DNA of 46,150 nucleotides, from positions 1 to 46,150 of the forward strand of contig DULK01000081.1 in NCBI GenBank assembly GCA_012840385.1, in the 5' to 3' direction. The notes beneath the pieces are model-generated. The model did not search any database. It was not told the origin of the DNA and saw nothing but the letters and a program-made list of their open reading frames with translations. Positions 657 through 41,156 of this stretch are shown here, piece by piece (the stretch's first letter is position 1; every line of letters starts with the position of its first letter). The translations under genes and the position numbers were made by a program. This DNA comes from Syntrophomonadaceae bacterium (GTDB taxonomy: Bacteria > Bacillota > DSM-12270 > Thermacetogeniales > Thermacetogeniaceae).

Positions 657-699
657 CTGTAACCACCTCCCTATCTCGCGTAGATCAAAGGTGAGCGCG

Positions 700-862
700 G
701 AACAGGCAGGTTTCCTGGCTCGGGTTCATTTTCTGCCTTACGCCTTCCCAGGCTTCCCCAGTGGCATTATGTAAGGCAAATCCCCCTCACAGTGGCGGGA
801 CCGCGCCGGATTTCCACCGGCTTCCCTCTTCGGCCTTGTATCGCTAGGCCACCTGCTCCTCA
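700..862 (-). promoter_or_regulatory. Cobalamin (AdoCbl) riboswitch
   Basis: The minus strand carries the hallmarks of the cobalamin aptamer in order. The P1 arm GCAGGT (850-855) pairs with ACCTGC (706-711). Next come the GAAGCCGGTGNAAATCCGGC block and GCGGTCCCGCCACTGTG, which holds the B12 box (about 789-806). A GCCACTGG box follows, and the aptamer closes with GAGCCAGGAAACCTGCC. An intrinsic terminator follows, implying that bound cobalamin stops transcription. No protein gene follows within the window; the next sequences are the two structured repeats at 565-1. The true target may lie left of position 1. Confidence 0.95.
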
Positions 863-1028
863 TTTAATTTTATTAATTATCTTCGTTGCACCTTAAACAA
901 AATCCTGCCTTCTTTCAAAAATATTTTTGCCCGTTACCGTGACCTGTGGTTTGAGTGTCATCCTGTTCATGCCTTTCCGGTTTTAGGCTGACCGGAACGA
1001 CCGGTGATATCAAGAAATCAAGAAAGGG

Positions 1029-7207: not shown

Positions 7208-8146
7208 GTGAAGCGATATCTGCTGAAAAGACTGCTTTACCTCTTTCCGGTAATGCTGGGGGTTTCCATAATCACTTTCGGTCTCATCAATTTAGCTCCA
7301 GGTGACCCGGCCGAACTGATCCTGCGGGCCGGGGGCGTGGAACCCACACGGGAGGCGGTGGAGGCCCTCCGCAGAGAATTGGGACTCAACGAACCGGTCT
7401 ACGTGCGCTACGGCCGGTGGCTTTGGGATGCCCTCCACCTCGACCTCGGCAAGTCATTTCGTACGGGCAGGCCGGTGGCGGAAGAAATTTTTTCCCGTTT
7501 CCCGGCGACTCTGGAATTAACCGTAGCGGCGCTGGGGGTTATGGTGCTTCTTGCCGTTCCTGCGGGTATTCTGGCCGCCCTTTACCGTCATGCCTTGCTG
7601 GATCACCTCAGCCGCATCTGCGCCCTGCTGGGTGCTTCACTACCCGGTTTCTGGCTGGGGTTGATGCTCATCTACCTCTTTTCGGTAAAGCTGGGCATAT
7701 TCCCGGTCATGGGGCGGGGCGGCCTGAACCATCTGGTGCTGCCCGCGGTGACGCTCGGTTTTGGGATGGCTGCCGTCTACGCCCGGCTCTTGCGTTCCGG
7801 TATGCTGGAGGTGCTGGGGCAGGAGTACATTAAGGCGGCCCGGGCCAGGGGACTCCATGAAAGATGGGTGATAGGCCGTCATGCCTTGAAAAATGCCCTG
7901 CTCCCCGCGGTAACCCTTTTTGGGATGAGTTTCGGGCATCTGCTGGGAGGGTCGGTGATCGTGGAGACCATTTTTGCCTGGCCGGGGGTGGGCAAGTTCG
8001 CCGTTGATTCCATTTTTAACAGGGACTATCCGGTGATTCAGGGCTATGCCCTCTTTATGGCGGTCGTATTCGTGGTGGCCAATTTGATGGTGGACCTTGC
8101 CTATGGGCTGCTCGATCCGCGCATCCGCCTGGAAGGGAGAAGATGA
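7208..8146 (+). CDS. NikB/DppB-type ABC transporter permease
   Basis: 312 residues from GTG 7208. It begins with the LLKRLLYLFPVMLGVSIITF opening of nickel/dipeptide permeases, has the early APGDPAE block, and a C-terminal BPD domain with the EAA loop EYIKAARARGLHERWVIGRHALKNALLP. Six membrane segments are expected. It is followed after one base by the NikC-type permease. Substrate (nickel complex or oligopeptide) cannot be told from the permease alone. The nickel/CODH-linked neighbours favour nickel. Confidence 0.88.
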   Translation: MKRYLLKRLLYLFPVMLGVSIITFGLINLAPGDPAELILRAGGVEPTREAVEALRRELGLNEPVYVRYGRWLWDALHLDLGKSFRTGRPVAEEIFSRFPATLELTVAALGVMVLLAVPAGILAALYRHALLDHLSRICALLGASLPGFWLGLMLIYLFSVKLGIFPVMGRGGLNHLVLPAVTLGFGMAAVYARLLRSGMLEVLGQEYIKAARARGLHERWVIGRHALKNALLPAVTLFGMSFGHLLGGSVIVETIFAWPGVGKFAVDSIFNRDYPVIQGYALFMAVVFVVANLMVDLAYGLLDPRIRLEGRR

Positions 8147-27207: not shown

Positions 27208-27453
27208 GCAGAGGTTCACCGGTGACAATTCATCAGCAGGGCTTCCAAAAGGTGCTGCACGTGCGGCCTGCTAGAGTTGGATTTTCCGGGATGATTCCCT
27301 TTGGTGATGCCATTACCCTAAGTAGGCTTCTGAAACTTTCGTTATCTCTGACCAGCGGTAACTGCCTCCGTGTGCGGGTATTCATCCCGGTAATTCATGC
27401 TCATAACTAAAAAAAGTACGGTGAAATGTCAAAAAATATTAGGAGGTTTGAAA
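27208..27453 (+). other. Long untranslated leader of the module I operon
   Basis: About 245 bases between the control element and the first start codon. It contains a GCAGG...CCTGC hairpin (27236-27273) and other short stems. No known riboswitch consensus was recognised, including cobalamin, SAM and THF. It is not shared with the other operon carrying the same control element. Confidence 0.35.
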
Positions 27454-28077
27454 ATGGAAGAACTAACAAAAGCAATTGTTGAATTAGAAAATGAAAAAGT
27501 TACCAAAATGGTGAAGGATGAGCTCGTTAAAGGAACAGCAGTAGAAGAGATTGTTGAAAAATGCAGGCAGGGCATGGAAATAGTCGGTCAGAAGTTCAGC
27601 AAAGGGGAATACTTCCTTCCCGAATTAATTATGGCCGGAGAGATTTTTAACTCCATCATCGAGATCATCCGTCCTGTTCTAGCGGAAGCCAAAACAAATA
27701 CTGTTGGAAAGATTGTCCTGGCAACTGTCCAAAATGACATCCACGATATTGGAAAGAATGTATTCAAGGGATTTGCGGAGGCTAACGGCTTTGATGTCCA
27801 CGACCTGGGAGTAGATGTCGATCCCGAAACAATTGTCAATACCATTAAAAATGAAAAGCCGGATATTGTCGGCCTGAGCTGTCTCCTCACATCAGCTTTT
27901 GACTCCATAGAAAACACAATCGCTAAAATCAAAGAAGCAGGTGTCCGCGACCAGGTAAAAATTATCATCGGTGGTGCTCCGGTAAGCGAAGAGCTTAAGG
28001 ATTGGTCGGGCGCTGACGCCGCCACCAGGAGCGCTGCTGAAGGTGTGCAACTCTGTAAAGAATTATTGAAGAAATAG
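27454..28077 (+). CDS. Corrinoid (methyl-carrier) protein, module I
   Basis: 207 residues from ATG 27454 behind AGGAGG. An upstream in-frame ATG at 27397 gives a basic tail foreign to the family. The helical cap domain is at 1-80 and the B12-binding Rossmann domain at about 85-207. The lower-ligand motif D95-x-H97-x-x-G100 is in NDIHDIGKN. It carries the methyl group between the URO-D-type methyltransferase coded next and a methyltetrahydrofolate-type partner, probably the one at 33487-34284. It is the MtaC/MtvC/MtoC type of protein. Confidence 0.93.
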   Translation: MEELTKAIVELENEKVTKMVKDELVKGTAVEEIVEKCRQGMEIVGQKFSKGEYFLPELIMAGEIFNSIIEIIRPVLAEAKTNTVGKIVLATVQNDIHDIGKNVFKGFAEANGFDVHDLGVDVDPETIVNTIKNEKPDIVGLSCLLTSAFDSIENTIAKIKEAGVRDQVKIIIGGAPVSEELKDWSGADAATRSAAEGVQLCKELLKK

Positions 28078-28090
28078 GAAAGGAGGTCCG

Positions 28091-29275
28091 ATGAACATGG
28101 CTGAAAATAAGAACTTGAAATTATATGAGGAGCGGTTAAACCGCATAGTCAAAGCGATGCAGCTTGAAGAACCCGACCGTGTTCCTCTGATCCCGCCAGA
28201 AGAAGGTTACTGGGTTGCTGCGTATGCCGGGTATTCTGTCGCCGATGTTACCTATGACTACTCCCTGCTGGCGGCAGCGTGGGAAAAGGCTTTTACGGAC
28301 TTTCCGGAGTGGGATGCCGCTTACGCTCCATTCTGCGTATGGTCCGGCCCTATGTTCGAATTCGCGGGGATCACTCAATTTGCCCTTGCCGGGAAAGACG
28401 GTGCTGCCCAGAAGATGCACCAGTGGAAACAGGTTTCCTGTATGTCTGAAGACGAGTACGACGAACTGATTGCCGATCCCTACAAGTTCCTCCTGGAAAA
28501 AATCTTGCCGCGGCGCTGCAAGGAATTAGGAAAACCATACCCCAGAAATGCAATGGCTTTTGGGAAAGCCTTCCAGGAGTTCCTGAGCTGGCTCGGTTAC
28601 TGGGGTGCAAAAGGTGCCGAATGGAAAGAGAAATTCGGCATGCCGGTACTCGCCGGCGGATTTACCGAAGCCCCCATTGACTTCCTGATGGATCACTTGC
28701 GCGGCTTTAAGGAATTCTCTCTTGATTTGCGGAAGTTACCGAAGGAAACTATCATCCGGGCCTGTGAAGCCCTGCTTCCCTACATGATCAAGTGGGCAAC
28801 CACAGGAACCCGGCCGGCTCTCTTCCCGCCAATCTTCATTCCACTGCATTTTGCTCCTTTCATTTCACCTGATTGTTTCAAGGAATTCTACTGGCCTACC
28901 TTCAAAAAACTTGTCGATTCACTGGTCGAACTGGGATATGGCGTAATCATCTACTGTGAATCAAACTGGACACCGCACCTGGCTTACCTGAAAGAACTTC
29001 CAAAAGGAAAAGTGATTGCCGAGTTCGAAACAATTGATATGAAAGAGGCCAAAAAGCTCATCGGAGATACAGTCTGCCTGATGGGCAACCTCCCCTACGA
29101 ACTGCTTGTGTACGGGACAAAGGAGAAAATTGAAGATTATACCAAGAAGCTGATTGATGAAGCCGCGCCAGGTGGAGGCTTTATCATGTCCGCCGATAAA
29201 ATCTTTGGTGAAAATGTCAACCCCAAATGCATGAGGTACTGGTGCGAAGCCGTAGTTAAATACGGTCAATACTAA
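28091..29275 (+). CDS. URO-D-superfamily corrinoid methyltransferase, module I
   Basis: 394 residues. ATG 28091 lies 4 bases after AGGAGG; ATG 28097, two codons on, is equally possible. The fold family is that of uroporphyrinogen decarboxylase, which includes MtaA/MtbA, CmuA and O-demethylase methyltransferases: early DRVPLIPPE, GVIIYCESNW, then KGKVIAEFETIDMKEAKKLIG and CLMGNLPYELLVYGT. The HxC zinc motif of MtaA-type enzymes is replaced by YCESNW. Together with the adjacent corrinoid protein, this suggests a primary substrate:corrinoid methyltransferase (for example for a methoxylated compound) rather than a coenzyme-M-type enzyme. Confidence 0.85.
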   Translation: MNMAENKNLKLYEERLNRIVKAMQLEEPDRVPLIPPEEGYWVAAYAGYSVADVTYDYSLLAAAWEKAFTDFPEWDAAYAPFCVWSGPMFEFAGITQFALAGKDGAAQKMHQWKQVSCMSEDEYDELIADPYKFLLEKILPRRCKELGKPYPRNAMAFGKAFQEFLSWLGYWGAKGAEWKEKFGMPVLAGGFTEAPIDFLMDHLRGFKEFSLDLRKLPKETIIRACEALLPYMIKWATTGTRPALFPPIFIPLHFAPFISPDCFKEFYWPTFKKLVDSLVELGYGVIIYCESNWTPHLAYLKELPKGKVIAEFETIDMKEAKKLIGDTVCLMGNLPYELLVYGTKEKIEDYTKKLIDEAAPGGGFIMSADKIFGENVNPKCMRYWCEAVVKYGQY

Positions 29276-29695: not shown

Positions 29696-29843
29696 AGCTC
29701 GCTTCTCCAGAATAAACCTATTGGGGCATCAGGAGCGAGCATAACAAAAGTGGAGTGTTCTTTTGCGGTTTGTGCACGTTTCTCCTTGGCAGGTCCAGTG
29801 GAAAGTAGCGAGGGAGGGCTTAGATCTGAGCAGGAAGGTCTTC

Positions 29844-31667
29844 ATGACAATTGCCGAAACATTAATCAAAGGTGATTCCTTCGGGGTTAAACAGTTGATA
29901 GAGCAGGCCCTGGAGGGGGGGATCGCTCCTGAGGACATTATCAAAGAAAGCCTGATCCCGGGCATGGAAACAGTAAGCGTCAAATTCCAGAGCGGTGAAT
30001 TCTACGTGATGGATGTTATCACCGCAGCGGATGCTATGCAAACTGGTATCAAGATACTGAAAGAAAGGTCTCGCGGCGAAAGAATACTTGATTTCCATGG
30101 CCGGATTGTCATCGGAACAGTGGAGGGTGACATCCATGATCTGGGCAAGAACATCGTCGCCCTGACGCTGGAAGGGGCGGGGTACGAAGTCATTGACCTG
30201 GGTGTGAATGTTTCCCCGGCTCAGTTCGTAGAGGCCATCGCAAAATTCCACCCGGATCTCGTCTGCATCTCCGCCCTGCTGACAGTGACCATGTGCAACA
30301 TCGAAGATGTCATCAAAGCCATCAAAGAAGCCGGCTTCCGGGAACAGGTCAAAATTATCATCGGGGGGGCGCCGATCACCCAGAGCTTTTCCGACAGGAT
30401 CGGGGCAGATGCTTATGTCAAATACGGCACTGATGCTCCTTATAAGGCAAGAGAGCTGTTAAAAAGTAGCAAGCAAAAAGATTTACGGGATCATCTGGCG
30501 GCAGTCCTGGACGCAAAATGCCAGGAAAGGTTGAAGGCGCTGCTCGAAGTTTGCCCCACCTTCATAGACGCGGCAGGGAATGTCATCCTCCAGGGGGATG
30601 GGGAGCCCCCTGGGCCTTGCCTACAGTGCCCGGAATGGCGGCAGCAGCAGTACATCGAGAATGCCGGGATCTTCTCCTGCCCCTGCGGCTTTATAAAAAT
30701 CGACGCAACAGTTATACTTGAAGGTAAAGCACTGGGGAAGATCTCCTTCGGTCCCTTTGCAGAAGGGATCGCCTCAACAGGAGGAGGCGGTTTCTCCCAT
30801 AACAGGGCTGGCTCAACCTGCCCTCGTATTAATGGGCCGGAGAACGAATTCGCTTTCCAGAGCATGAAAGCACCTCCACTGAAAGCGGAAAAAATGCTTC
30901 TCATTATCCAGGCTTTTTCCGAGCTTGTGCAGGAAAAGATAAAGGAGCAGCAGCTACAGCAGCAAATCGAAGAACAAAAAGAAAGCCTGATCCGTTCGCT
31001 GAAATTCCAGGAAGAGCTGAAGAACGCCCTTAATGAAGCAAACTACCGCTCACTGCAGTCACAGGTTAACCCCCATTTTTTGTTCAACAGCCTGAACAGT
31101 CTGGCCCGCATGGCAATGCTGGAAGGAGCGGAGCAAACCGAAAAACTGTCCTACGCTCTCGCACGAATTCTTCGCTACATCCTCCAGAACTTCAAGGGTA
31201 CGGTTACCATCGCCGAAGAAATCAAAATGCTTCAGGACTACCTCTTCATCCAGCAGGCACGTTTTTCCGATCGTCTCCAAATAGAGTTTCAGCTTGAAGA
31301 AGGTATTGAGAAGGCGCACATTCCCTGCTTGGTACTGCAGCCGCTCGTGGAGAATGCCGTCCTGCACGGTATTGAGCCTCTTGAAGGGGAAGGAGTACTC
31401 AAGATCTGCGGCAGGCTGGAAAAGCAGAAGATCATTTTCGAAATAAGGGATAACGGGGTCGGTATCCCCCCCAGCAAACTGAAGGAAATTTCCCAGCTCA
31501 ACATTAACAGCTCCGGACGCGGCCATACGACCGGTCTCGGTCTTGCCCACGTCCACCAGCGCCTCCAGCATTACTTCGGGGCCGATTATGGCCTGGAAAT
31601 TGAAAGCCATGAGAACGAAGGCACTCTAGTGAGGATAAATTTTCCCTATATCCACCAGGGTGGGTGA
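29844..31667 (+). CDS. Sensor histidine kinase with B12-binding and PocR domains
   Basis: 607 residues from ATG 29844 (AGGAAGG site; 27 extra in-frame residues upstream are not family-like). Order: corrinoid cap domain (1-80); B12-binding domain (85-205) with D96-x-H98-x-x-G101; PocR-type sensory domain (about 215-320) with cysteines C237, C259, C262, C279 and C281; coiled coil (360-400); LytS-type kinase with phospho-accepting H411 in NPHFLFN; and ATPase boxes LVENAVLHG and DNGVGIP. No membrane helix. It probably senses a bound corrinoid or its methylation state and signals to the regulator coded 6 bases downstream. Confidence 0.9.
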   Translation: MTIAETLIKGDSFGVKQLIEQALEGGIAPEDIIKESLIPGMETVSVKFQSGEFYVMDVITAADAMQTGIKILKERSRGERILDFHGRIVIGTVEGDIHDLGKNIVALTLEGAGYEVIDLGVNVSPAQFVEAIAKFHPDLVCISALLTVTMCNIEDVIKAIKEAGFREQVKIIIGGAPITQSFSDRIGADAYVKYGTDAPYKARELLKSSKQKDLRDHLAAVLDAKCQERLKALLEVCPTFIDAAGNVILQGDGEPPGPCLQCPEWRQQQYIENAGIFSCPCGFIKIDATVILEGKALGKISFGPFAEGIASTGGGGFSHNRAGSTCPRINGPENEFAFQSMKAPPLKAEKMLLIIQAFSELVQEKIKEQQLQQQIEEQKESLIRSLKFQEELKNALNEANYRSLQSQVNPHFLFNSLNSLARMAMLEGAEQTEKLSYALARILRYILQNFKGTVTIAEEIKMLQDYLFIQQARFSDRLQIEFQLEEGIEKAHIPCLVLQPLVENAVLHGIEPLEGEGVLKICGRLEKQKIIFEIRDNGVGIPPSKLKEISQLNINSSGRGHTTGLGLAHVHQRLQHYFGADYGLEIESHENEGTLVRINFPYIHQGG

Positions 31668-31673
31668 TTATAG

Positions 31674-33299
31674 TTGTATTCTGTCATGATTGTAGACGAT
31701 GAAGCCCTGGAAAGAAAAGGGTGGAGGATGATCCTGGAAAGATATCGGTCGGACCAGATCCGTGTGGCCGTAGAGGCGAAAAACGGCAAAGAAGCGGTGG
31801 AACTGGCATGGAAAACGCGACCCGACATCATCCTGATGGATGTGAAAATGCCGGGACTTGACGGGATTATGGCCAGCAAAGCCATAAAGAAGTTTCTTCC
31901 TGAGGTCAAAATAATCATTATTTCCGCCTATGACGATTTTGCCTACGCTCATGAGGCAATGCAGTTGAGGGCTGTGAACTACCTCTTAAAACCCGTTCAG
32001 CGCGGGGACATGCTTGATATCATCGACAGGCAGCTACAAGAGTTGGAAAATGAAAGGAAGCGAAAGGCGGAAGAAGAGGAACTACGGGAAGCGCTCCAGA
32101 GGATGATGCCTTACATCAAAATTGGCTTTATCTTCGAACTGCTAGCGGGAAATGTCAAATCCGCTGCAGAGATTCGTGAGAGAGCAGAATTTCTGGGAAT
32201 CAAACAGCTGCCGCAGGTAATACTTGTTGCCAACATTGATAACTTTGTGCAGCTCACCAGGAACAAGAAGGAAATCGAGCGCCAAGTTCTGAAACACAAA
32301 ATCTTTGAAAAAATAACAGCAGTTTCTAGAGAATGGCCGCAGAGCCTCTGCATCCCCTTGCAAGAGGACAAATATGGGATCCTTCTGGGGCCGCAGGATG
32401 GTGAGCATCCGGAAAAGCTGCGCAGGCGTGCTGAACGCCTAGCGGAGACCATAAGAAGGGAGATCGAAAACGATCCCTTTATCCACACTACGGTCACCAT
32501 CGGAATAGGAAGGACCTACCGAGAGGTTGACAATCTCCATCTTTCCTATAAAGAGGCCCTGAGGGCGCTTGAATACAAGCTCTATACAGACGGAAACCAG
32601 GTCATACATATTGACGATGTGCTCCCCTACGATGAACGCATTCACACCTACCCCTATACACTGGAGAAGGAGCTTATCTCCAGTTTCCGCATCGGAGACA
32701 GGGAATGTGCTCTCCAGTGGCTGGAAGAGTTACTTAGTGAACTGCTTTCCAAAACAAACAACAATCCCGTTCTTCTCAAAACCCGGCTGCTCCAACTGCT
32801 GCTCGTTCTCTCCCGCCAGGCAATCGAAAGCGGGGCAGATCCCGAAGAAGTAGGCAGACAGGATTTTACCTGCGCTCAGGAACTGCAGAGCAAAGAGAAT
32901 TTAAATGAACTGCGGAAGTGGGTTGTGGCAAAAGTTGAACAGTTGATACGGTTGATTCAGGAAAGCCGCAGCCAGCGCCAGGAAAACATCATGAAAAAAG
33001 TGGTTAACTACATCCACCAGCACTACCACCGCGACCTTACCCTGGAAGAGGTAGCAGAAGCGGTCCATTTCAGCCCCTGCTACCTGAGCCGGATCTTCAA
33101 ACAGATGCAGAAAGTCAATTTCATCGATTACCTCACTCGGGTAAGGCTGGAAAAAGCAAAAATGCTACTCAAAGCAAGCAACTATTCCATCTCGAGCATT
33201 GCCAGAAAAGTCGGGTACCAGGATCCCAAATACTTCAGTACCCTATTCAAAAAGCACGTTGGCTGTACACCGAGCGAGTACCGGCAGAATATTGCATAG
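31674..33299 (+). CDS. AraC-type response regulator (YesN-like)
   Basis: 541 residues from TTG 31674 (GGGTGGG upstream; ATG 31686 is a weaker alternative inside the first strand). The receiver domain spans 1-120, with the VDDE acidic pair near the N-terminus, the phospho-site aspartate in IILMDVKMPG, and KPVQ. A long middle region (about 130-420) with coiled-coil and YesN/GGDEF-like folds follows. The C-terminal AraC DNA-binding domain has FSPCYLSRIFKQM and ISSIARKVGYQDPKYFSTLFKK. It is the partner of the B12-domain kinase. The duplicated control element at 27115 and 34511 is its most likely target. Confidence 0.92.
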   Translation: MYSVMIVDDEALERKGWRMILERYRSDQIRVAVEAKNGKEAVELAWKTRPDIILMDVKMPGLDGIMASKAIKKFLPEVKIIIISAYDDFAYAHEAMQLRAVNYLLKPVQRGDMLDIIDRQLQELENERKRKAEEEELREALQRMMPYIKIGFIFELLAGNVKSAAEIRERAEFLGIKQLPQVILVANIDNFVQLTRNKKEIERQVLKHKIFEKITAVSREWPQSLCIPLQEDKYGILLGPQDGEHPEKLRRRAERLAETIRREIENDPFIHTTVTIGIGRTYREVDNLHLSYKEALRALEYKLYTDGNQVIHIDDVLPYDERIHTYPYTLEKELISSFRIGDRECALQWLEELLSELLSKTNNNPVLLKTRLLQLLLVLSRQAIESGADPEEVGRQDFTCAQELQSKENLNELRKWVVAKVEQLIRLIQESRSQRQENIMKKVVNYIHQHYHRDLTLEEVAEAVHFSPCYLSRIFKQMQKVNFIDYLTRVRLEKAKMLLKASNYSISSIARKVGYQDPKYFSTLFKKHVGCTPSEYRQNIA

Positions 33300-33486
33300 A
33301 AACATCGGTTGCGCTCACCAGTGCTTTCAAAATGAGGATTCAGATTACTATCCTCAGCCCCCAGTTCTATCAACCGCTGTCTCTGGGTAACCGTCCAGGT
33401 GCTCCCCTTTCTAACCGTGCATGGTCATGCGGAGCACCCTCGGTTCAGCTTATACCGCCGCCCTTCTCCCTGCAGGCGTCTATAGG
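33300..33486. other. Convergent intergenic stretch with hairpins
   Basis: It contains a TGAGGAT..ATCCTCA hairpin (33331-33356) and GGTGCTCC/GGAGCACC arms at 33399-33438. The latter, read on the minus strand with its TGCACGGTTAG and CCGAGGGTGC neighbours, reminds me of sequence found at ends of group II introns or similar elements. No gene is seen. Confidence 0.4.
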
Positions 33487-34284
33487 CTAGAAATCGAATT
33501 TATTTTTTCTGTAAGCCTTAAGATAATTGGTGCAATATTTATCCCGGCCCGCCAGCGTCTCGGCAGCAGTTATGCAAGCCATCATCCGCTGATCCAGCGG
33601 GTTGATGATCAGAGCGTCGAGTCCCTTTGCTATGGCCATCACCGCAAAGGTCTGATTCAAGAATTTGCGGGCCGGCAATCCGTAAGAGATGTTGGAAAGC
33701 CCGCATATCGTGTGCACACCGGCAAACCCGGTCATGATGGCCTCAACGGCGTTCAGAAATTCGATGCCAAAGGTATCTTTTGTCCCCACCGGCTGAACCA
33801 GGGGGTCTACGTAGATGTTATCAAGAGGAATGTTGGCTCTGGTCAAACCATTGATGAGCTTTTCGGCAATCTTTAGCCTGTCATCCGTGGTTTCAGGCAT
33901 GCCATCATCGCTCATGCAGAGTGCCACCACTTTCAGATCGGTGCCGGAGATAACCGGCAGGAGGGCGTCATAGCGTTGCTTCTCCAGGGAAATGGAATTG
34001 ATCATTGCCACTCCTCTATGCACTGTCAGAGCGGCCTCGATGGCTTTCGGGTCGGGACTGTCAATGCAACAAGGGCAGTCCACCACCTCCTGGACGTTCT
34101 GAACCAGCCATTTCAGATAGTCGGCCTCTTTGCCCACAAATATTCCGGCATTGACATCAATGTAATCAGCCCCTGCCTGGCGCTGTTCCCGGGCCACCTT
34201 TTTGATGGCATCAGCGTCCTGTGCCTCGATCATTTCTGCAATCGGCTTGCGGCTGGCATTGATCAGTTCTCCAACAACCAGCAT
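33487..34284 (-). CDS. DHPS-like corrinoid:tetrahydrofolate methyltransferase, module I
   Basis: 265 residues on the minus strand. The pterin-binding TIM-barrel family of MtgA/MtvA/AcsE is evident from the opening GELINASRKPI, YIDVNAGIF, CIDSPDPKAIEAAL, MINSIS, VVALCMSDDGMP, YVDPLVQPVG and GLSNISYGLP. It would move the methyl group from the corrinoid protein to tetrahydrofolate, or the reverse. It is transcribed divergently from module II but preceded by the same control element as the module I operon, so it belongs functionally to that operon. It is clearly homologous to the protein at 38665 but not a recent duplicate. Confidence 0.92.
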   Translation of the reverse strand: MLVVGELINASRKPIAEMIEAQDADAIKKVAREQRQAGADYIDVNAGIFVGKEADYLKWLVQNVQEVVDCPCCIDSPDPKAIEAALTVHRGVAMINSISLEKQRYDALLPVISGTDLKVVALCMSDDGMPETTDDRLKIAEKLINGLTRANIPLDNIYVDPLVQPVGTKDTFGIEFLNAVEAIMTGFAGVHTICGLSNISYGLPARKFLNQTFAVMAIAKGLDALIINPLDQRMMACITAAETLAGRDKYCTNYLKAYRKNKFDF

Positions 34285-34422
34285 CTCAGTACCTCCTCGT
34301 AGTTCTGATTATTGAAATCCTTCTCCTAACAGGGGTATGGAAGACAACTCCACCGTATATATGTATTGCGTATATCATCCAGATTCAAAGTTATATCTGT
34401 ACTTCGTATATCCTCAAAGATT

Positions 34423-34511
34423 AATTTTATAATAATTTGGGGCACAATCCCCCTCAATTCAAAATTTTTGCGCTAATGGGGGATCTCTTGCCGAGAGTTC
34501 ATACTTGGACC
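34423..34511 (-). promoter_or_regulatory. Shared control element, copy 2 (divergent methyltransferase gene)
   Basis: The reverse complement nearly duplicates 27115-27207, including the ATCCCCC/GGGGGAT inverted repeat, GGGGGATTGTGCCCC and the AT-rich promoter-proximal end. It faces the minus-strand methyltransferase gene with about 140 bases of leader in between. Confidence 0.85.
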
Positions 34512-34603
34512 GTTAATTTAGCTTTCCAGTTTGTCCTTGATTTCCCGCAGCCTGGCGCAAAATTAAATCAACTCATAGTGTGACTTGACCTTACGCGAAC
34601 TGA

Positions 34604-34635
34604 AAACGACTCGGTTAGTCGAAAGTGACTCGTTT
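34604..34635. promoter_or_regulatory. Candidate upstream activator site for the sigma-54 promoter
   Basis: Imperfect palindrome: the left arm reads AAACGACTCG. The right arm, on the other strand, reads AAACGAGTCAC. An inner GACT...AGTC pair is also present. It is centred about 90 bases upstream of the expected start point, the usual position for an enhancer-binding protein such as the one coded at 39678. Confidence 0.6.
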
Positions 34636-34655
34636 CTGTTTTGCCGCCTGCTATT

Positions 34656-34684
34656 AAAACCCCATGAAATGAGGGGGTTTTTTT
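34656..34684 (+). terminator. Intrinsic terminator just upstream of the sigma-54 promoter
   Basis: AAAACCCC ... GGGGGTTTTTTT with an ATGAAATGA loop. It lies between the activator site and the promoter, with no + strand gene upstream. Its effect would be to stop read-through into module II. Confidence 0.75.
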
Positions 34685-34685
34685 G

Positions 34686-34702
34686 TTGGCATAAAACTTG
34701 CG
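34686..34702 (+). promoter_or_regulatory. Sigma-54 (RpoN) promoter of module II
   Basis: TTGGCATAAAACTTGCG matches the -24/-12 consensus (TGGCAC-N5-TTGC) at every position except C to T next to the -24 box, with the GG and GC 12 bases apart. Transcription should begin near 34713, ahead of the MttB-family gene. A sigma-54 activator is coded in the same cluster. Confidence 0.85.
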
Positions 34703-34843
34703 ATAACAGCCGGCAGGGCTATTTTTACATCTACTATCTTGCCCAGGGTTAACCCGGGAATTTGTTTCTTGAAGTAAAGGAGGGGTTCATTAGGGGTCGA
34801 TGCTTGGTTAGCCTGACACTTAATTATGAGGGGAGGATTTACA

Positions 34844-36328
34844 GTGATCAGAAGTCTGAAGGCAGGATTTAATTCATTATCGGGATTCGGGCTGAACGCC
34901 TTTACAGCAGATGAGTTGGAATCGCTTCACCTTGCCACGCTGGAAGTGCTGTCCGAGGTGGGGATCAAAGTAGAGTCCGACGAGGCCATCGAGATATTCC
35001 AGGGTGCAGGTGCCAAGGTTGAACGGGTCAAGGATTACGGTATTGTAAAGTTTCCTCACTACCTTGTGGAGGATTGCATCCGGTGGGCTCCCAGAAACGT
35101 TATATATTACGGAAGAGATAGCAATAAAGATTACATCCTGGAACCCAAACGGGTAGGCTTCAGCACTTTTGGCGAGTGCATCCAGGTGATTGATCCCTAT
35201 ACCAGGCAGGTTAGAAAATCGGTCAAGAGTGATCTGGGAGGAGCTACCCTGGTTTGTGACTACCTGGATGAGATTGTTGCGGTTGAAAGGGCTCTCTGCT
35301 CTTCGGATCAGTTTCCCGAAACGCAGCCGTTACATAATTTCGAGGCAATGGTCACAAACACCGGCAAACATCTTCTGCTCGGTTTTGGAAGTGGTGCAAA
35401 CACGAAAAAGATTATCGAAATGGCGGCGGCATGCGTCGGGGGTATGGAAAATTTCAAGAAGCGGCCTATTGTGACGGCATTTGTATGCCCCACCAGTCCT
35501 CTGACCCTCGTTAAGAGGTGCTGTGAAGTTATCATCGAGTGCGCCCGGCTTGGAGCGGGTATAGCCATTATCCCCATGGCCCTGTCCGGTGCAACCTCGA
35601 CCGCGACCCTGGCGGGGACGCTGGTTCAGCATAACGCGGAAGTATTGAGTGCTTTGATGCTGGCCCAGTTGACCAACAAGGGTACGCCCTGCACCTATTC
35701 AAGCTGCACTACAATGATGGATTTGAGATTTACGATTACGGCCGTCGGCGCTCCAGAATACGGGATTATCAGCGCCGGATTGGCTAAACTTGCCCAGTAT
35801 TACCGGCTTCCGGTATGGGTGGGTGGAGGCCATTCGGACAGCAAGCTTCCCGATGCCCAGGCAGCCTATGAAGCCAGTATAACTGCAACCGTCGCTGCGT
35901 TAGCCGGTGCCAATGTTATTTACGGTGCGGGTTGCCTGGAATCCGGTTTGACCTTTGATTATGCCAAACTGGTTATGGACGCCGAAATGATCAGGGGGGT
36001 TCAACAGGTTGTCAAGGGGATCGAAGTTAATGACGAAACTTTGGGGATTGACGTTATTAAAGAAGTGGGTCCCGGCGGTGAGTTCATGACACATCCCCAT
36101 ACTTTCAAACACATGAAAGAATTGTCCCAGTCCCGATTGTTTGACAGGAGAAACCGTGAGTCCTGGCAGGAGTTTGCAGGCGGTAAGGACCTGACGGAGC
36201 GAGCCTATGAAGAAGCAAAGCACATCCTTGAGAACCACAAGCCTGCGCCGCTGCCTGACGGTGCTGCCGAAGCCATGAAGTCTATTATCGAGGAGTATGA
36301 AGCGGAACTGAAAACCAACCACCAGTAA
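34844..36328 (+). CDS. MttB-superfamily quaternary-amine:corrinoid methyltransferase (MtgB-like)
   Basis: 494 residues from GTG 34844 behind GAGGGGAGGA. The MttB family (COG5598) is recognised from LHLATLEVLSEVGIKV, FSTFGECIQVIDPYTRQVRKS, LVQHNAEVLSALMLAQL and LPDAQAAYEASITATVAALAGANVIYGAGCLESG. There is no in-frame TAG, so it is a non-pyrrolysine member, the group that includes glycine betaine (MtgB), carnitine and proline betaine methyltransferases. It would pass one methyl group to the corrinoid protein at 37941. The BCCT gene 22 bases on supports a betaine-like substrate. First gene of the sigma-54 operon. Confidence 0.9.
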   Translation: MIRSLKAGFNSLSGFGLNAFTADELESLHLATLEVLSEVGIKVESDEAIEIFQGAGAKVERVKDYGIVKFPHYLVEDCIRWAPRNVIYYGRDSNKDYILEPKRVGFSTFGECIQVIDPYTRQVRKSVKSDLGGATLVCDYLDEIVAVERALCSSDQFPETQPLHNFEAMVTNTGKHLLLGFGSGANTKKIIEMAAACVGGMENFKKRPIVTAFVCPTSPLTLVKRCCEVIIECARLGAGIAIIPMALSGATSTATLAGTLVQHNAEVLSALMLAQLTNKGTPCTYSSCTTMMDLRFTITAVGAPEYGIISAGLAKLAQYYRLPVWVGGGHSDSKLPDAQAAYEASITATVAALAGANVIYGAGCLESGLTFDYAKLVMDAEMIRGVQQVVKGIEVNDETLGIDVIKEVGPGGEFMTHPHTFKHMKELSQSRLFDRRNRESWQEFAGGKDLTERAYEEAKHILENHKPAPLPDGAAEAMKSIIEEYEAELKTNHQ

Positions 36329-36350: not shown

Positions 36351-37919
36351 ATGGCACAAGAAAAAAGGCTGAAGCTGGATCATGCGTTATTCTGGCCGCC
36401 GCTGTTATTGATCTCGTTAATATGTGCCTATATTATCGGTCATCCGGCCAAAGCGAAAACCATATCCGACAATGCCCTGGCCTGGGTTACGGACAAGCTG
36501 GGCTGGGCCTTTGAGTGGTACGTAGTGGCGCTGTTTCTGATCGCCCTTTATATGATCTTTGGGAAGTTGGGCAACAAGAAACTCGGTTCAGGTGAACCCG
36601 AATTTAAAACTTTCAGCTGGTTGGGATTGATGTTTACCTCAACGGCCAGCGCGGCTCTAATCTACTGGGCCACGATCGAATGGTTCTACTACATGAAGAC
36701 CCCACCATGGGGTGCCAAGCCCTTCTCCCCTGAAGCGGCAGACTGGGCGTCCTGTTACGGCATGTACCACTGGGGGTTAATTCCCGTAGCCATGTATGTG
36801 GTGATTGCCGTGGCCATCGGCTATAACTTCTTTATCAGGAAGAGGAAAGTCATCAGACCGAGCGATGTCTGCGGAATTCTCGGTCAGCAGAAGGACAGGC
36901 TGCTCGGGAAAGTTATCGATGTCCTCTACATCATCGGTATGGTGGCCGGCGTCGGCACCTCGTTGGGTTTGGGGACACCGCTGATAGCAGAGTTGATCTC
37001 CAAAATTTTCGGGGTTCAACATACTCTGTCTCTCGACGGCTACATACTGATTGCCTGGATCGCTCTGTTTACCACCTGCCTCTACTTCGGTTTGCAGAAA
37101 GGCATCAAGTTCTTAAGTGACGTCAGAATCTGGCTGGCATTCGGTGTGCTGATATTTGTCCTGGTGGTCGGACATACGTCTTATATCCTGAACTCCTTCA
37201 CCCAGGCTCTGGGCACCATGCTCCAGAACATTGTCAGAATGTCGCTCTATACCGATCCCCACGGAAAATCCGGATGGCCGCAGGGTTGGACCATCTTCTA
37301 CTGGGCATGGTTCTTGAACTGCGTGATTACGTATGCCATCTATCTGGTCCGCATCTCCAGGGGTAGAACGGTAAAGGAATTCGGTCTTGCGGTACTGGGT
37401 TCCATCACTCTCGGCGAGATGGTCTTCTTCGCCGTCTTTAGCAACTATGCCATGTACGTGCACGAGAATCACATTTTGAATATTGCTCATTACTTTGATA
37501 AGTTCGGCCCTGCCAGAGCTATTGTGGAGATCTGGGCGACTTTACCGCTGGCCAAGATAGTCCTGCCGATTCTCCTGATTTACGCCTTCATTTCCACGGC
37601 CACGTTTATCAACGGTGTGGCCTATACCCTGGCTATGGTGACTACTAAGGAGATCACCGAGGATGATGAGCCTTCCAAACTGAACCGGGTCACCTGGGCT
37701 CTCTTGCTGGGTGTACTGGCGATATCACTGCTCTTTATGGGAGGTTTAGGCCCTCTCCAGACTTCGGCTGTCGTCGGCGGGTTGCCGATGATGATCGTGT
37801 GTATCGTGATACCTATCTCGTTTTTTAAAGAAGTGAAGAAGTGGGGTTGGAAGACGAACGGTGAGGGTCCGGAAATCGAGGTTCCTGAAGAGACGGCTCT
37901 TTCACAGCGAATGATTTAA
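36351..37919 (+). CDS. BCCT-family betaine/carnitine/choline transporter
   Basis: 522 residues, about 12 membrane helices. The family region AALIYWATIEWFYY (helix 3-4) and the signature near SGWPQGWTIFYWAWFLNCVITYAIYLVRISRGRTV (about 305-340) are clear. It imports a quaternary ammonium compound, by exchange or with an ion. Its place between the methyltransferase and corrinoid-protein genes makes it the substrate entry route of module II. The CaiT- or BetP-like mode cannot be decided by eye. Confidence 0.93.
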   Translation: MAQEKRLKLDHALFWPPLLLISLICAYIIGHPAKAKTISDNALAWVTDKLGWAFEWYVVALFLIALYMIFGKLGNKKLGSGEPEFKTFSWLGLMFTSTASAALIYWATIEWFYYMKTPPWGAKPFSPEAADWASCYGMYHWGLIPVAMYVVIAVAIGYNFFIRKRKVIRPSDVCGILGQQKDRLLGKVIDVLYIIGMVAGVGTSLGLGTPLIAELISKIFGVQHTLSLDGYILIAWIALFTTCLYFGLQKGIKFLSDVRIWLAFGVLIFVLVVGHTSYILNSFTQALGTMLQNIVRMSLYTDPHGKSGWPQGWTIFYWAWFLNCVITYAIYLVRISRGRTVKEFGLAVLGSITLGEMVFFAVFSNYAMYVHENHILNIAHYFDKFGPARAIVEIWATLPLAKIVLPILLIYAFISTATFINGVAYTLAMVTTKEITEDDEPSKLNRVTWALLLGVLAISLLFMGGLGPLQTSAVVGGLPMMIVCIVIPISFFKEVKKWGWKTNGEGPEIEVPEETALSQRMI

Positions 37920-37940: not shown

Positions 37941-38576
37941 ATGAGTGATTTCGATAGTTTGGCCCAGGCAGTATTTCACGGTGATTTTGACGGTGTCGTA
38001 TCTGCTACAAAGAATCTTTTGGACCGTGGCGTCAACCCGCTGGATGTTATCAACAAAGGGCTTTTAGCAGGAATGGACATCGTGGCTCCCAAATTTAAGG
38101 CCGGCGAAATGTTCGTTCCGGAGGTGATGATGTGCGCTAAGGCCTTAGGGGAAGGCATGAAAATCGTTCAACCTCTTCTTTCATCTTCCGAGGCGGCTTC
38201 GGCGGGTACGGTGGTAATCGGAACCGTTGCCGGTGACCTGCATGACATCGGTAAGAATTTGGTTGTCATGATTCTCAAGAGCGGCGGCTTTAACGTCATC
38301 GACCTTGGCGTCGATGTTTCCCCGGAGGGCTTCGTAAATGCAATAAAGGAACACAGTCCTCAGATTGTAGGCATGTCCGCCCTGTTGACCACAACCATGG
38401 TAAATATGAAGAAAACCCTGGATGCGATGGAGGCGGCAGGGGTGCGGGATAAGGTAAAGGTGATTATTGGCGGCGCCCCTGTTTCTCAGAGCTTTGCCGA
38501 TGAAATCGGAGCCGACGGTTATGCGCCGGACGCCATGGCGGCCAAGGAGCTGTGTGCAAAAATCATCAAGGGTTAA
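37941..38576 (+). CDS. Corrinoid (methyl-carrier) protein, module II
   Basis: 211 residues from ATG 37941 (GGGAGG site). Cap domain at 1-85 and B12-binding domain at about 88-211, with D99-x-H101-x-x-G104 in GDLHDIGKN. It is MtgC/MttC-like. It accepts the methyl group from the MttB-type enzyme and donates it to the DHPS-like enzyme coded next. It shares the general fold, but limited sequence, with the module I protein at 27454. Confidence 0.94.
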   Translation: MSDFDSLAQAVFHGDFDGVVSATKNLLDRGVNPLDVINKGLLAGMDIVAPKFKAGEMFVPEVMMCAKALGEGMKIVQPLLSSSEAASAGTVVIGTVAGDLHDIGKNLVVMILKSGGFNVIDLGVDVSPEGFVNAIKEHSPQIVGMSALLTTTMVNMKKTLDAMEAAGVRDKVKVIIGGAPVSQSFADEIGADGYAPDAMAAKELCAKIIKG

Positions 38577-38583
38577 ATGGCGG

Positions 38584-38615
38584 TAGTCAGGAAACCGTTC
38601 GTTGTTTCCTGACTA
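38584..38615 (+). terminator. Strong hairpin between corrinoid protein and methyltransferase genes
   Basis: TAGTCAGGAAAC / GTTTCCTGACTA, 12-bp perfect arms, no immediate T run. It sits 8 bases after the stop codon. It may lower expression of downstream genes or stabilise the upstream mRNA, which is common where the corrinoid protein is needed in excess. Confidence 0.5.
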
Positions 38616-38664: not shown

Positions 38665-39471
38665 ATGCTGATCATAGGGGAACTGATCAATACCAGCCGT
38701 AAACCGATTAAAGAGGCGGTGGAGAAAAGGGATGCGGGGTATATCAAAAAGATCGCCAAAGAACAGATCGAAGCAGGGGCGCACTACATCGATGTAAACT
38801 GCGGGACTATGGTTTTTAACGAAGTGGAAATGATGGAGTGGCTTGTTACTAATGTCCAGGATGCCGTGGAAGCTCCGTTGTGTATAGATAGTCCCAACCC
38901 TGAGGCCCTGGAGGCAGGGTTGAGGTTGTGTAGATACGGTCAACCGATGATTAACTCCATAACCGATGAAAAGGAGAGATTTGATAAGGTTCTCCCCCTT
39001 GTATTGAAGTACAGGGCCAAGATAGTGGCACTGTGTATGGATGATACCGGAATGCCTGATACGGCGGAGGACCGCATGCGTGTGGCGAGAAATTTGCATG
39101 CCAAACTTACCGCCGCAGGGGTTCCGGAAGAGGATATCTATTTCGACCCTCTTGTCAAGCCTGTTAGCAGTGTTGAGACCGCAGGCATAGAAGTGCTGGA
39201 AACAATCAAGATGATCAAAGAGCAGTACCCCAAGGTCCATTTCACGTGCGGACTCAGCAACGTGTCGTACGGGCTGCCAAACCGCAAGGTCCTGAACCGC
39301 TATTTTGTTGTTCAAACCATGGCTATGGGAATGGACGGCTATATTCTGGACCCGACCGATAGGGATATGATGGGTGCCATTTACGCCTCCATGGCTCTTT
39401 TGGGGCAGGATGCATATTGCATGGGCTACATAACCGCTCATAGAAAGGGCCTGTACAGACATGAGAGCTAG
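38665..39471 (+). CDS. DHPS-like corrinoid:tetrahydrofolate methyltransferase, module II (MtgA-like)
   Basis: 268 residues from ATG 38665 (AGGGGGATGG site). Blocks: GELINTSRKPIKEAV, YIDVNCGTMV, CIDSPNPEALEAGL, MINSITDE, IVALCMDDTGMPDTAEDR, YFDPLVKPVSS, FTCGLSNVSYGLPNRK. It completes the methyl path of module II by methylating tetrahydrofolate. It is similar in length and blocks to the protein at 33487-34284, so each module has its own enzyme of this kind. Confidence 0.93.
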   Translation: MLIIGELINTSRKPIKEAVEKRDAGYIKKIAKEQIEAGAHYIDVNCGTMVFNEVEMMEWLVTNVQDAVEAPLCIDSPNPEALEAGLRLCRYGQPMINSITDEKERFDKVLPLVLKYRAKIVALCMDDTGMPDTAEDRMRVARNLHAKLTAAGVPEEDIYFDPLVKPVSSVETAGIEVLETIKMIKEQYPKVHFTCGLSNVSYGLPNRKVLNRYFVVQTMAMGMDGYILDPTDRDMMGAIYASMALLGQDAYCMGYITAHRKGLYRHES

Positions 39472-39677: not shown

Positions 39678-41156
39678 ATGCCAGTCAATAATGAAGTGTC
39701 CGGGATTGCAAATGAGCGGATTGACGGTAAGGAGAGCCCGGTTGACCTGGATGCCGCAACATTAAAAAAAATCCTTGATAATTCCTACGACGAGATTTTC
39801 GTCCTCGATGGTAATGGGCGCGTCATTTATGTAAACAATGCTTGCGAACGTCACTACGGTATGAAAGTATCCGAGGTTATAGGCAAAACCATCACCGAAT
39901 TGATCGGTCTTGGATACTGGCATCCGCCGGTAACACCGATTGTTCACAGAGAAAAGCGGCGGGTTACCATTGAACAAACAACTTATCTCGGTAAGAAGTT
40001 GATAACTACCGTAACTCCTGTCTTCGATGAAAAAGGGGAAATTGAGCTCACCGTACACAATGCCCGCGATCTGACGCAGCTTGAGGCCGTCAAGTACGAG
40101 CTTGAAATGACGCGCCACAGCCTGGTCAATTATAGAAAAAAAAGTAAGACCGACAATCCTAAAAGGGCATTCGGTGAGATAATCTGTCACAGCAAAAAAA
40201 TGAAGGAACTGGTTGAATTTGCAGAGCAGATTGCCTGCGTGGATTCGACTGTTCTGATCTTAGGTGAATCGGGTACCGGGAAGGGGCTGTTTGCCAGGCA
40301 TATTCATAAAAACAGCAGGAGAAAAGACGGCCCTTTCCTTGCCCTCAACTGTGCCGCAATTCCTGAGGACCTGCTTGAGTCCGAGTTGTTCGGCTACTCA
40401 AATGGCGCCTTTACGGGAGCGGAGCGGGGAGGAAAAAAAGGCCTGATTGAACTGGCTAACGGAGGAACTCTCTTTCTGGATGAAATTGCGGAACTATCTC
40501 CCCGGCTGCAGGCAAAGATCCTGCAGGTGATTCAGGAGCGGCAGTTTATACCCGTCGGCGGCACGGAAGTCAAAAAAGCTGATGTAAGAATAATTTCAGC
40601 AACCAATCAAGACCTGCCGGACATGGTTGAGAAGGGCTCATTTCGTAAAGACCTTTATTACCGGTTAAATGTTATCGAGATCAATATTCCACCCTTAAGA
40701 GAACGTCCTGAAGACATTATTCCCCTGGTCTACTTTTACATTGAGAAATTCAATAAGAAATACAACGTTTGCCGCGATGTCTCAAAAGAATGTCTGGAGA
40801 CATTGTGCCGGTACAGCTGGCCGGGGAATGTGCGCGAGCTTGAGAACCTTATTGAACGGTTGGTCGTATCGGTTCGTGATAATGAGATTAAGACAGAACA
40901 TCTTCCGAAACTTTTCCAACAAGAATTTAAAACAGAACGCCGTACCGGCAACTTGACTGTCGACAATAACACCTTTAGCTTTCCTCCAAATGTTCCTTTT
41001 GACGTGATAATGCGAGAGGTTGAAAAAGAGTTGATCACTCGAGCTTATCGAGAATACGGCAGTTCGAGAAAGGTGGCAAAAGCGCTCAAGATCAGCCAGA
41101 CGAAGGCGTCCCGATTGATTCGTAAATATTGTAAGAATATGGAGGTGGCTCTTTAA
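39678..41156 (+). CDS. PAS-domain sigma-54-dependent transcriptional activator
   Basis: 492 residues. PAS domain at about 28-135; AAA+ domain at about 165-395 with Walker A GESGTGKG (196-203), the sigma-54-contacting GAFTGA loop (243-248), Walker B TLFLDEI (264-270) and the WPGNVREL region; Fis-like helix-turn-helix at 460-484. It should activate the sigma-54 promoter at 34686 from the palindrome at 34604. The PAS domain is the likely input, perhaps sensing the amine or a redox cue. The stop codon overlaps the start of the next gene. Confidence 0.93.
   Translation: MPVNNEVSGIANERIDGKESPVDLDAATLKKILDNSYDEIFVLDGNGRVIYVNNACERHYGMKVSEVIGKTITELIGLGYWHPPVTPIVHREKRRVTIEQTTYLGKKLITTVTPVFDEKGEIELTVHNARDLTQLEAVKYELEMTRHSLVNYRKKSKTDNPKRAFGEIICHSKKMKELVEFAEQIACVDSTVLILGESGTGKGLFARHIHKNSRRKDGPFLALNCAAIPEDLLESELFGYSNGAFTGAERGGKKGLIELANGGTLFLDEIAELSPRLQAKILQVIQERQFIPVGGTEVKKADVRIISATNQDLPDMVEKGSFRKDLYYRLNVIEINIPPLRERPEDIIPLVYFYIEKFNKKYNVCRDVSKECLETLCRYSWPGNVRELENLIERLVVSVRDNEIKTEHLPKLFQQEFKTERRTGNLTVDNNTFSFPPNVPFDVIMREVEKELITRAYREYGSSRKVAKALKISQTKASRLIRKYCKNMEVAL

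What the first reader, a model, noticed from the sequence alone, without database searches (positions are those of the whole stretch)
34604..34713. Insulated sigma-54 control of quaternary-amine demethylation
A consensus -24/-12 promoter, a palindromic activator site ~90 bases upstream of the start point and an intrinsic terminator between them form a compact switch. The terminator has no gene to terminate on the + strand, so it may block stray transcription and leave the operon wholly dependent on the activator at 39678. Sigma-54 control of MttB-type methyl transfer deserves attention.
Basis: partly seen in the sequence, partly recalled or inferred. Interest (0 to 1): 0.6.

Follow-up and report, generated by a model that had tools for sequence, protein, structure and literature searches.

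The report
Enhancer switch for methylated-amine demethylation operon
A bacterial operon for stripping methyl groups from amines such as carnitine or trimethylamine appears to be switched on by its own dedicated activator protein, and the same kind of activator, DNA site and promoter recur beside related genes in other anaerobic bacteria, so the switch looks like a shared but so far poorly described one.

Summary
The -24/-12 promoter (34686-34702) and a terminator-like hairpin (34656-34684) are real. Nested in it, TAGTC-N6-GACTC (34616-34631) is the likelier activator site: AGTC-N5/6-GACT precedes 21 of 56 sigma-54 promoters in loci carrying orthologues of the activator at 39678 (shuffles 0.11) and 0 of 16 in control loci. 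A composite site-plus-promoter search of 398 genomes hit 8 of 13 genomes with a detected orthologue and 2 of 385 without. MttB-family genes lie in 18 of 25 orthologue loci, 0 of 11 controls; 17 of 23 collected relatives' mttB genes have an in-frame TAG at the pyrrolysine position, the window gene has His330 and its genome no PylS above cut-off. The operon is mttB-BCCT-mtgC-MeTr. Sigma-54 control of betaine/mttB genes is already reported in Sporomusa; the dedicated activator family and its site are what is added here. 'Insulation' is untested: 7 of 8 comparable terminators simply follow an upstream gene.

The parts
34616..34631 (+). Likely activator (enhancer) site TAGTC-GAAAGT-GACTC, core AGTC-N6-GACT at 34617-34630
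   Evidence: Matches AAGTC-N5/6-GACTT found upstream of sigma-54 promoters beside activator orthologues; only such core in the window
34604..34635 (.).
   Evidence: Present; not significant alone; GACTCGTTT-like strings also upstream of mttB in L049 and L052, read by eye
34656..34684 (+). Terminator-like hairpin (8-bp stem, 10-nt loop, 7 T)
34686..34702 (+). Sigma-54 -24/-12 promoter; start point expected near 34713 (inference)
34844..36328 (+). mttB-family methyltransferase, GTG start, no TAG; His330 at the pyrrolysine position
   Evidence: PF06253, TIGR02369 above cut-off; alignment
36351..37919 (+). BCCT transporter, L-carnitine/gamma-butyrobetaine antiporter type
   Evidence: NF002887 above cut-off
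37941..38576 (+). MtgC/MttC-like corrinoid protein
   Evidence: B12-binding domains; best NCBIfam hits below their cut-offs
38665..39471 (+). Second MeTr-type (pterin-binding) methyltransferase, likely last gene of the operon
   Evidence: PF00809
39678..41156 (+). Sigma-54 activator: PAS, AAA+ with lid, HTH_50
   Evidence: PF00158, PF08448, PF25601, PF18024
33487..34284 (-). Divergent MeTr-type methyltransferase; sigma-70-like site at 34457-34429 on the - strand
   Evidence: NF005719 above cut-off

Best explanation
The region is the promoter-enhancer of the operon mttB-BCCT-mtgC-MeTr. The PAS/AAA+/HTH activator encoded at 39678, on sensing a methylated amine or a related signal (inferred), binds the inverted repeat TAGTC-N6-GACTC centred about 90 bp before the start point (inferred from comparative evidence), loops over the terminator and remodels sigma-54 RNA polymerase held at 34686-34702. 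It belongs to an activator family that often sits beside amber (TAG)-containing mttB genes in the window's phylum and also occurs in Desulfobacterota; here the enzyme is a Pyl-free version. Shown: promoter sequence, recurrence of the site, gene neighbourhood, RpoN gene. Inferred: binding, ligand, start point, substrate.
For: MttB-family hit in 18 of 25 fetched orthologue loci (misses L035, L066, L067, L068, L076, L078, L080), 0 of 11 loci of 43-48% relatives. AGTC-N5/6-GACT upstream of 21 of 56 promoters vs shuffle mean 0.11 and control 0 of 16; AAGTC-N5/6-GACTT with >=9 of 10 matches at 29 of 57 promoters vs 0.4 in shuffles, controls 0 of 16. Composite search: 14 sites in 10 of 398 genomes, reversed control 1 site; 8 of 13 orthologue genomes vs 2 of 385, Fisher 3.9e-12; by genus 6 of 11 vs 2 of 255, 2.7e-8; counting only sites outside loci used to define the motif 4 of 13 vs 2 of 385, 1.0e-5. 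Recognition-helix motif SQ(S/T)KA in the window and 24 of 25 orthologues (L083: SQSKV), in none of the control activators aligned. Genes after composite hits fit methylated-amine use: MttB-family, corrinoid activator RACo, APH/choline-kinase-like.
Against: The window's own site is 8 of 10 to the consensus; on that looser score >=8 arises in about 12% of shuffled regions (7.0 of 57), so the case rests on the exact core (p about 0.006) plus context. Promoters in loci of the window's own family (L032-L037) and Desulfobacterota activator loci (L066, L067, L084) have no exact core, so the site varies; 35 of 56 promoters lack the exact core and 28 of 57 score below 9. The motif was read from partly the same loci on which it was counted. 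No expression or binding data.
Confidence: 0.8

Rival explanations
1. The terminator is a true insulator that keeps stray + strand transcripts out of the operon.
For: Orphan position: no co-directional gene end within 1387 bp, and the stem ends 8 bp before the promoter.
Against: In 7 of 8 comparable promoters the terminator just follows a co-directional gene; no + strand sigma-70-like site was found in 33200-34720, so there is little known to block.
Confidence: 0.25
2. The terminator is a leftover of an arrangement activator gene - enhancer - terminator - promoter - mttB, as still seen in L069, L070, L072, L077 and L082, before the activator gene moved downstream.
For: In those five loci the terminator ends 8-12 bp before the -24 element with a co-directional gene, the activator by position, ending 96-140 bp upstream; the activator tree places these near the window's (support only 0.67).
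Against: No convincing activator remnant in 34285-34843 (only short weak matches among some 100 queries); the window MttB groups with Desulfobacterota MttBs, not with those loci.
Confidence: 0.3
3. The hairpin ends a short unannotated + strand RNA or the read-through of the response-regulator gene ending at 33299.
For: No listed terminator directly after 33299; the + strand scan hits at 33763 and 34175 lie inside the opposite-strand MeTr.
Against: No + strand promoter-like site and no Rfam match in the intergenic region.
Confidence: 0.2
4. The operon is mainly sigma-70 driven and the -24/-12 match is fortuitous.
For: Sigma-54 matches with up to 1 mismatch are near background in this genome.
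Against: Exact, intergenic, best-scoring site with a recurrent enhancer and a cognate activator gene; no + strand sigma-70-like site between 33200 and 34720.
Confidence: 0.05

Closest known systems
SigL (sigma-54) controlled 58-kb betaine cluster of Sporomusa sphaeroides KIAC (PMC12456013; passages read)
   Same: -24/-12 promoters mapped by dRNA-seq, sigma-54 regulators in the cluster, trimethylamine methyltransferase genes among those activated on betaine
   Different: No enhancer sequence in the main text (terms upstream activ, palindrom, inverted repeat, UAS: 0); whether its regulators belong to this activator family was not tested
Sigma-54 regulon survey listing MttB (COG5598) in Clostridia (PMC12316311; passages read)
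   Same: Predicted sigma-54 promoters at mttB genes
   Different: No activator or enhancer for them in the passages seen
MtcB / MtyB (L-carnitine / gamma-butyrobetaine) demethylases of Eubacterium limosum (PMC8604678; search listing only)
   Same: MttB superfamily members that act on quaternary amines
   Different: Sequence relation not compared here; their regulation not examined
PrdR, NifA and TyrR-type sigma-54 activators (NCBIfam)
   Same: AAA+/HTH architecture
   Different: Scores far below the curated cut-offs of all of these (e.g. PrdR 419.5 vs 795 bits)

Membership tests
Sigma-54-dependent promoter | GG and GC dinucleotides 12 nt apart in TGGCAY-N5-TTGC | tested here: met
   34688-34689 and 34700-34701
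Sigma-54-dependent promoter | Genome encodes RpoN | tested here: met
   PF04552, 207.6 bits
Sigma-54-dependent promoter | Transcription lost without RpoN | not testable with these tools
   Needs a bench test
Bacterial enhancer-binding protein | AAA+ sigma-54 interaction domain plus HTH | tested here: met
   PF00158 235 bits, PF18024 37 bits
Bacterial enhancer-binding protein | Recurrent inverted-repeat enhancer upstream of cognate promoters | tested here: met
   the window copy departs at the outer bases
TMA methyltransferase MttB (pyrrolysine type, TIGR02369) | Score above family cut-off | tested here: met
   648.6 vs 525 bits
TMA methyltransferase MttB (pyrrolysine type, TIGR02369) | In-frame UAG for pyrrolysine and PylS in the genome | tested here: not met
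   His330 at that column; no PylS above cut-off
Pyl-free quaternary-amine demethylase (MtgB/MtcB/MtyB type) | Demethylates glycine betaine, carnitine or gamma-butyrobetaine | not testable with these tools
   Only the CaiT-type transporter hints at it
Intrinsic terminator | Stem-loop followed by a U tract | tested here: met
   folding z only -1.5

The most novel reading that the evidence does not exclude
A dedicated sigma-54 activator family with its own enhancer code (AAGTC-N5/6-GACTT and lineage variants) governs pyrrolysine-dependent trimethylamine demethylation clusters across the window's phylum and Desulfobacterota; in the window's lineage the enzyme has histidine in place of pyrrolysine and the genome lacks PylS while the same switch was kept, so the regulator outlived the genetic-code expansion it served.
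Probability: 0.3. Interest if true: 0.6.

Novelty: new member of a known kind. Interest (0 to 1): 0.45.

Why it matters
Microbial use of methylated amines feeds methane and trimethylamine budgets, yet how bacteria switch mttB-type genes on is little described: in the held open-licence library no paper holds pyrrolysine, sigma-54 and trimethylamine together, and of the listings only the Sporomusa and survey papers were direct precedents in what I read. A predicted activator, its site and a set of candidate regulon genes (MttB, RACo, a choline-kinase-like protein, microcompartment shell proteins) make this directly testable.

Tried and rejected
Outer palindrome as the sole activator site: not significant alone. 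Second genomic mttB (C87) under the same switch: its AGTC-N5-GACT lies inside a BCCT-like gene with no promoter near, so I took it as chance; of 17 such cores in the genome (reversed control 64) I examined 16 (the one on C98 was fetched but not examined), and only the window's had a -24/-12 site scoring >=12 nearby, L099 having a weak one of 11.8. Remnant activator gene upstream: none convincing. Riboswitch or known RNA in the intergenic region: none at gathering scores. A Desulfitobacterium paper listed (PMC9888536, passages read) was not relevant. Rows dropped before counts: promoter sites overlapping called ORFs, short upstream stretches and identical upstream sequences; one search left out L050 as a duplicate of L084; one search used L084 while one search used L050 and L052 instead, hence 56 and 57 promoters; one search counted 17 control promoters, 16. 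The MttB tree and TAG count used only hits of >=44% identity and about 330 aa or more (23 plus the window). The sigma-54 matrix was written from memory. One search scored only 3 candidates per genome after its first look and used E <= 1e-140, so absence of an orthologue in the 385 is not proven. In one search only the sequence after the site was read for gene type; one kinase-like protein of six was run through Pfam, the others judged by eye.

Full report
What is there. Upstream of the operon lie, in order, an imperfect inverted repeat (34604-34635), a terminator-like hairpin (34656-34684) and a -24/-12 promoter (34686-34702). The promoter is the only intergenic sigma-54-like site scoring 10.5 or more in the window, one of 4 exact TTGGCAYN5TTGC sites in the genome, and the genome encodes RpoN. 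The operon is mttB (34844), a CaiT-type BCCT transporter, an MtgC-like corrinoid protein and a second MeTr-type methyltransferase (38665-39471), which one search listed beside an opposite-strand ORF without any family match; the activator gene follows at 39678.

Which palindrome. The comparative data point to a nested site. I fetched 25 loci around orthologues of the activator (about 49-56% identical) and 11 around less similar activators (43-48%). Upstream of the sigma-54 sites in the first set, AAGTC-N5/6-GACTT recurs: the core AGTC-N5/6-GACT lies 25-200 bp upstream of 21 of 56 promoters (window included; shuffles mean 0.11, maximum 2), and of 0 of 16 in the control set; with nine or ten of the ten consensus bases it is found at 29 of 57 promoters against 0.4 in shuffles and 0 of 16 controls.

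Wider test. A composite pattern (core, 55-85 bp, TGGCAYN5TTGC) was searched in 398 genomes of the phylum: 14 sites in 10 genomes, one site for the reversed control. Eight of the 13 genomes in which one search found an activator orthologue have it, against 2 of the 385 others (Fisher 3.9e-12; by genus 6 of 11 against 2 of 255, 2.7e-8). This is not fully blind, because several of these sites lie in loci from which the motif was read; counting only genomes with sites outside those loci gives 4 of 13 against 2 of 385 (1.0e-5). The genes after the 14 sites are APH/choline-kinase-like (6), MttB-family (3, the window included), microcompartment shell proteins (2), a RACo corrinoid activator (1), a class-III aminotransferase (1); one site lies inside a gene (of the six kinase-like ones, one was run through Pfam and five are judged by eye).

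Activator family. The activator and its orthologues form a clade of 26 with support 1.0 in a midpoint-rooted FastTree of 39. The recognition-helix string SQ(S/T)KA is in the window protein and 24 of 25 orthologues and in none of the control activators aligned. An MttB-family hit lies in 18 of the 25 orthologue loci and in 0 of 11 controls. Of 23 MttB sequences collected from these and the named MAG loci, 17 carry an in-frame stop at one column, TAG in all 17; that this is the pyrrolysine position is recalled from the family. The window enzyme has His330 there, as do its two nearest relatives (L049, L084), and its genome has no PylS above the cut-off. Both the activator (support 0.991) and MttB (0.86) of the window group with sequences from MAGs titled Desulfobacterales or Proteobacteria; two sister genomes of its genus, 91% and 85% complete, lack the activator orthologue. 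Together these suggest transfer between phyla (inference).

Results against. In the loci of the window's own family (L032-L037) no exact core was found upstream of the promoters, and in Desulfobacterota-type loci only variants such as GAGTC-N6-GAATC (L052) or GAGTT-N6-AACTC (L049, read by eye). So the site differs between sublineages, and the window's copy, 8 of 10 to consensus, would not stand out on the loose score alone.

Terminator. A terminator-like element lies within 130 bp upstream of 8 of 56 promoters in the test set (shuffle mean 0.4) and of 4 of 17 controls. In 7 of the 8 a co-directional gene ends 96-225 bp upstream; only the window's is an orphan. In five loci (L069, L070, L072, L077, L082; L069 and L082 near-identical) the order is activator gene, site, terminator, promoter, mttB. 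So the compact layout is not unique, and its usual reason is ending the upstream gene. Whether the window's copy insulates, is a leftover, or ends an unknown RNA cannot be decided here; no convincing activator remnant is left.

Known or new. Sigma-54 control of a betaine cluster that includes trimethylamine methyltransferase genes was reported from dRNA-seq in Sporomusa sphaeroides KIAC (PMC12456013, passages read), and MttB appears in a sigma-54 survey (PMC12316311, passages read); the Clostridiales sigma-54 regulon paper PMC6615313 has none of six terms searched in its main text, betaine, trimethylamine and the half-site strings among them. I found no enhancer described for these genes in the searches made, in an open-licence library only. 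The finding is therefore a new member of a known kind of switch, with a candidate activator family and site that appear undescribed as far as these searches reach.

Noticed in passing
29763-31667 and 31674-33299: A corrinoid-protein-like B12-binding module fused to a histidine kinase, followed by an AraC-type response regulator, next to a corrinoid protein (27397-28077) and a URO-D-family protein (28091-29275): a possible corrinoid- or methyl-sensing two-component system.
   Followed up: partly
34844-36328, codon 330: MttB has His where 17 of 23 collected relatives have an in-frame TAG; Rfam's PYLIS_3 still matches at 35831-35930 although there is no TAG.
   Followed up: partly
38584-38613: Strong intercistronic inverted repeat (GTAGTCAGGAAAC...GTTTCCTGACTAC) between mtgC and the second MeTr gene, possibly a partial terminator or mRNA stabiliser (by eye).
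   Followed up: no
688-871 (-): Cobalamin riboswitch, 128 bits (Rfam RF00174).
   Followed up: no
L103 7336-19475 (G000:C87): Second mttB cluster of the genome with two BCCT-like transporters and an AraC-type regulator; a strong -24/-12 site at 7336 is far from its mttB.
   Followed up: partly
L118, L120: Composite activator site plus sigma-54 promoter in front of bacterial microcompartment shell genes, suggesting that the regulon includes a compartment in some genomes.
   Followed up: no
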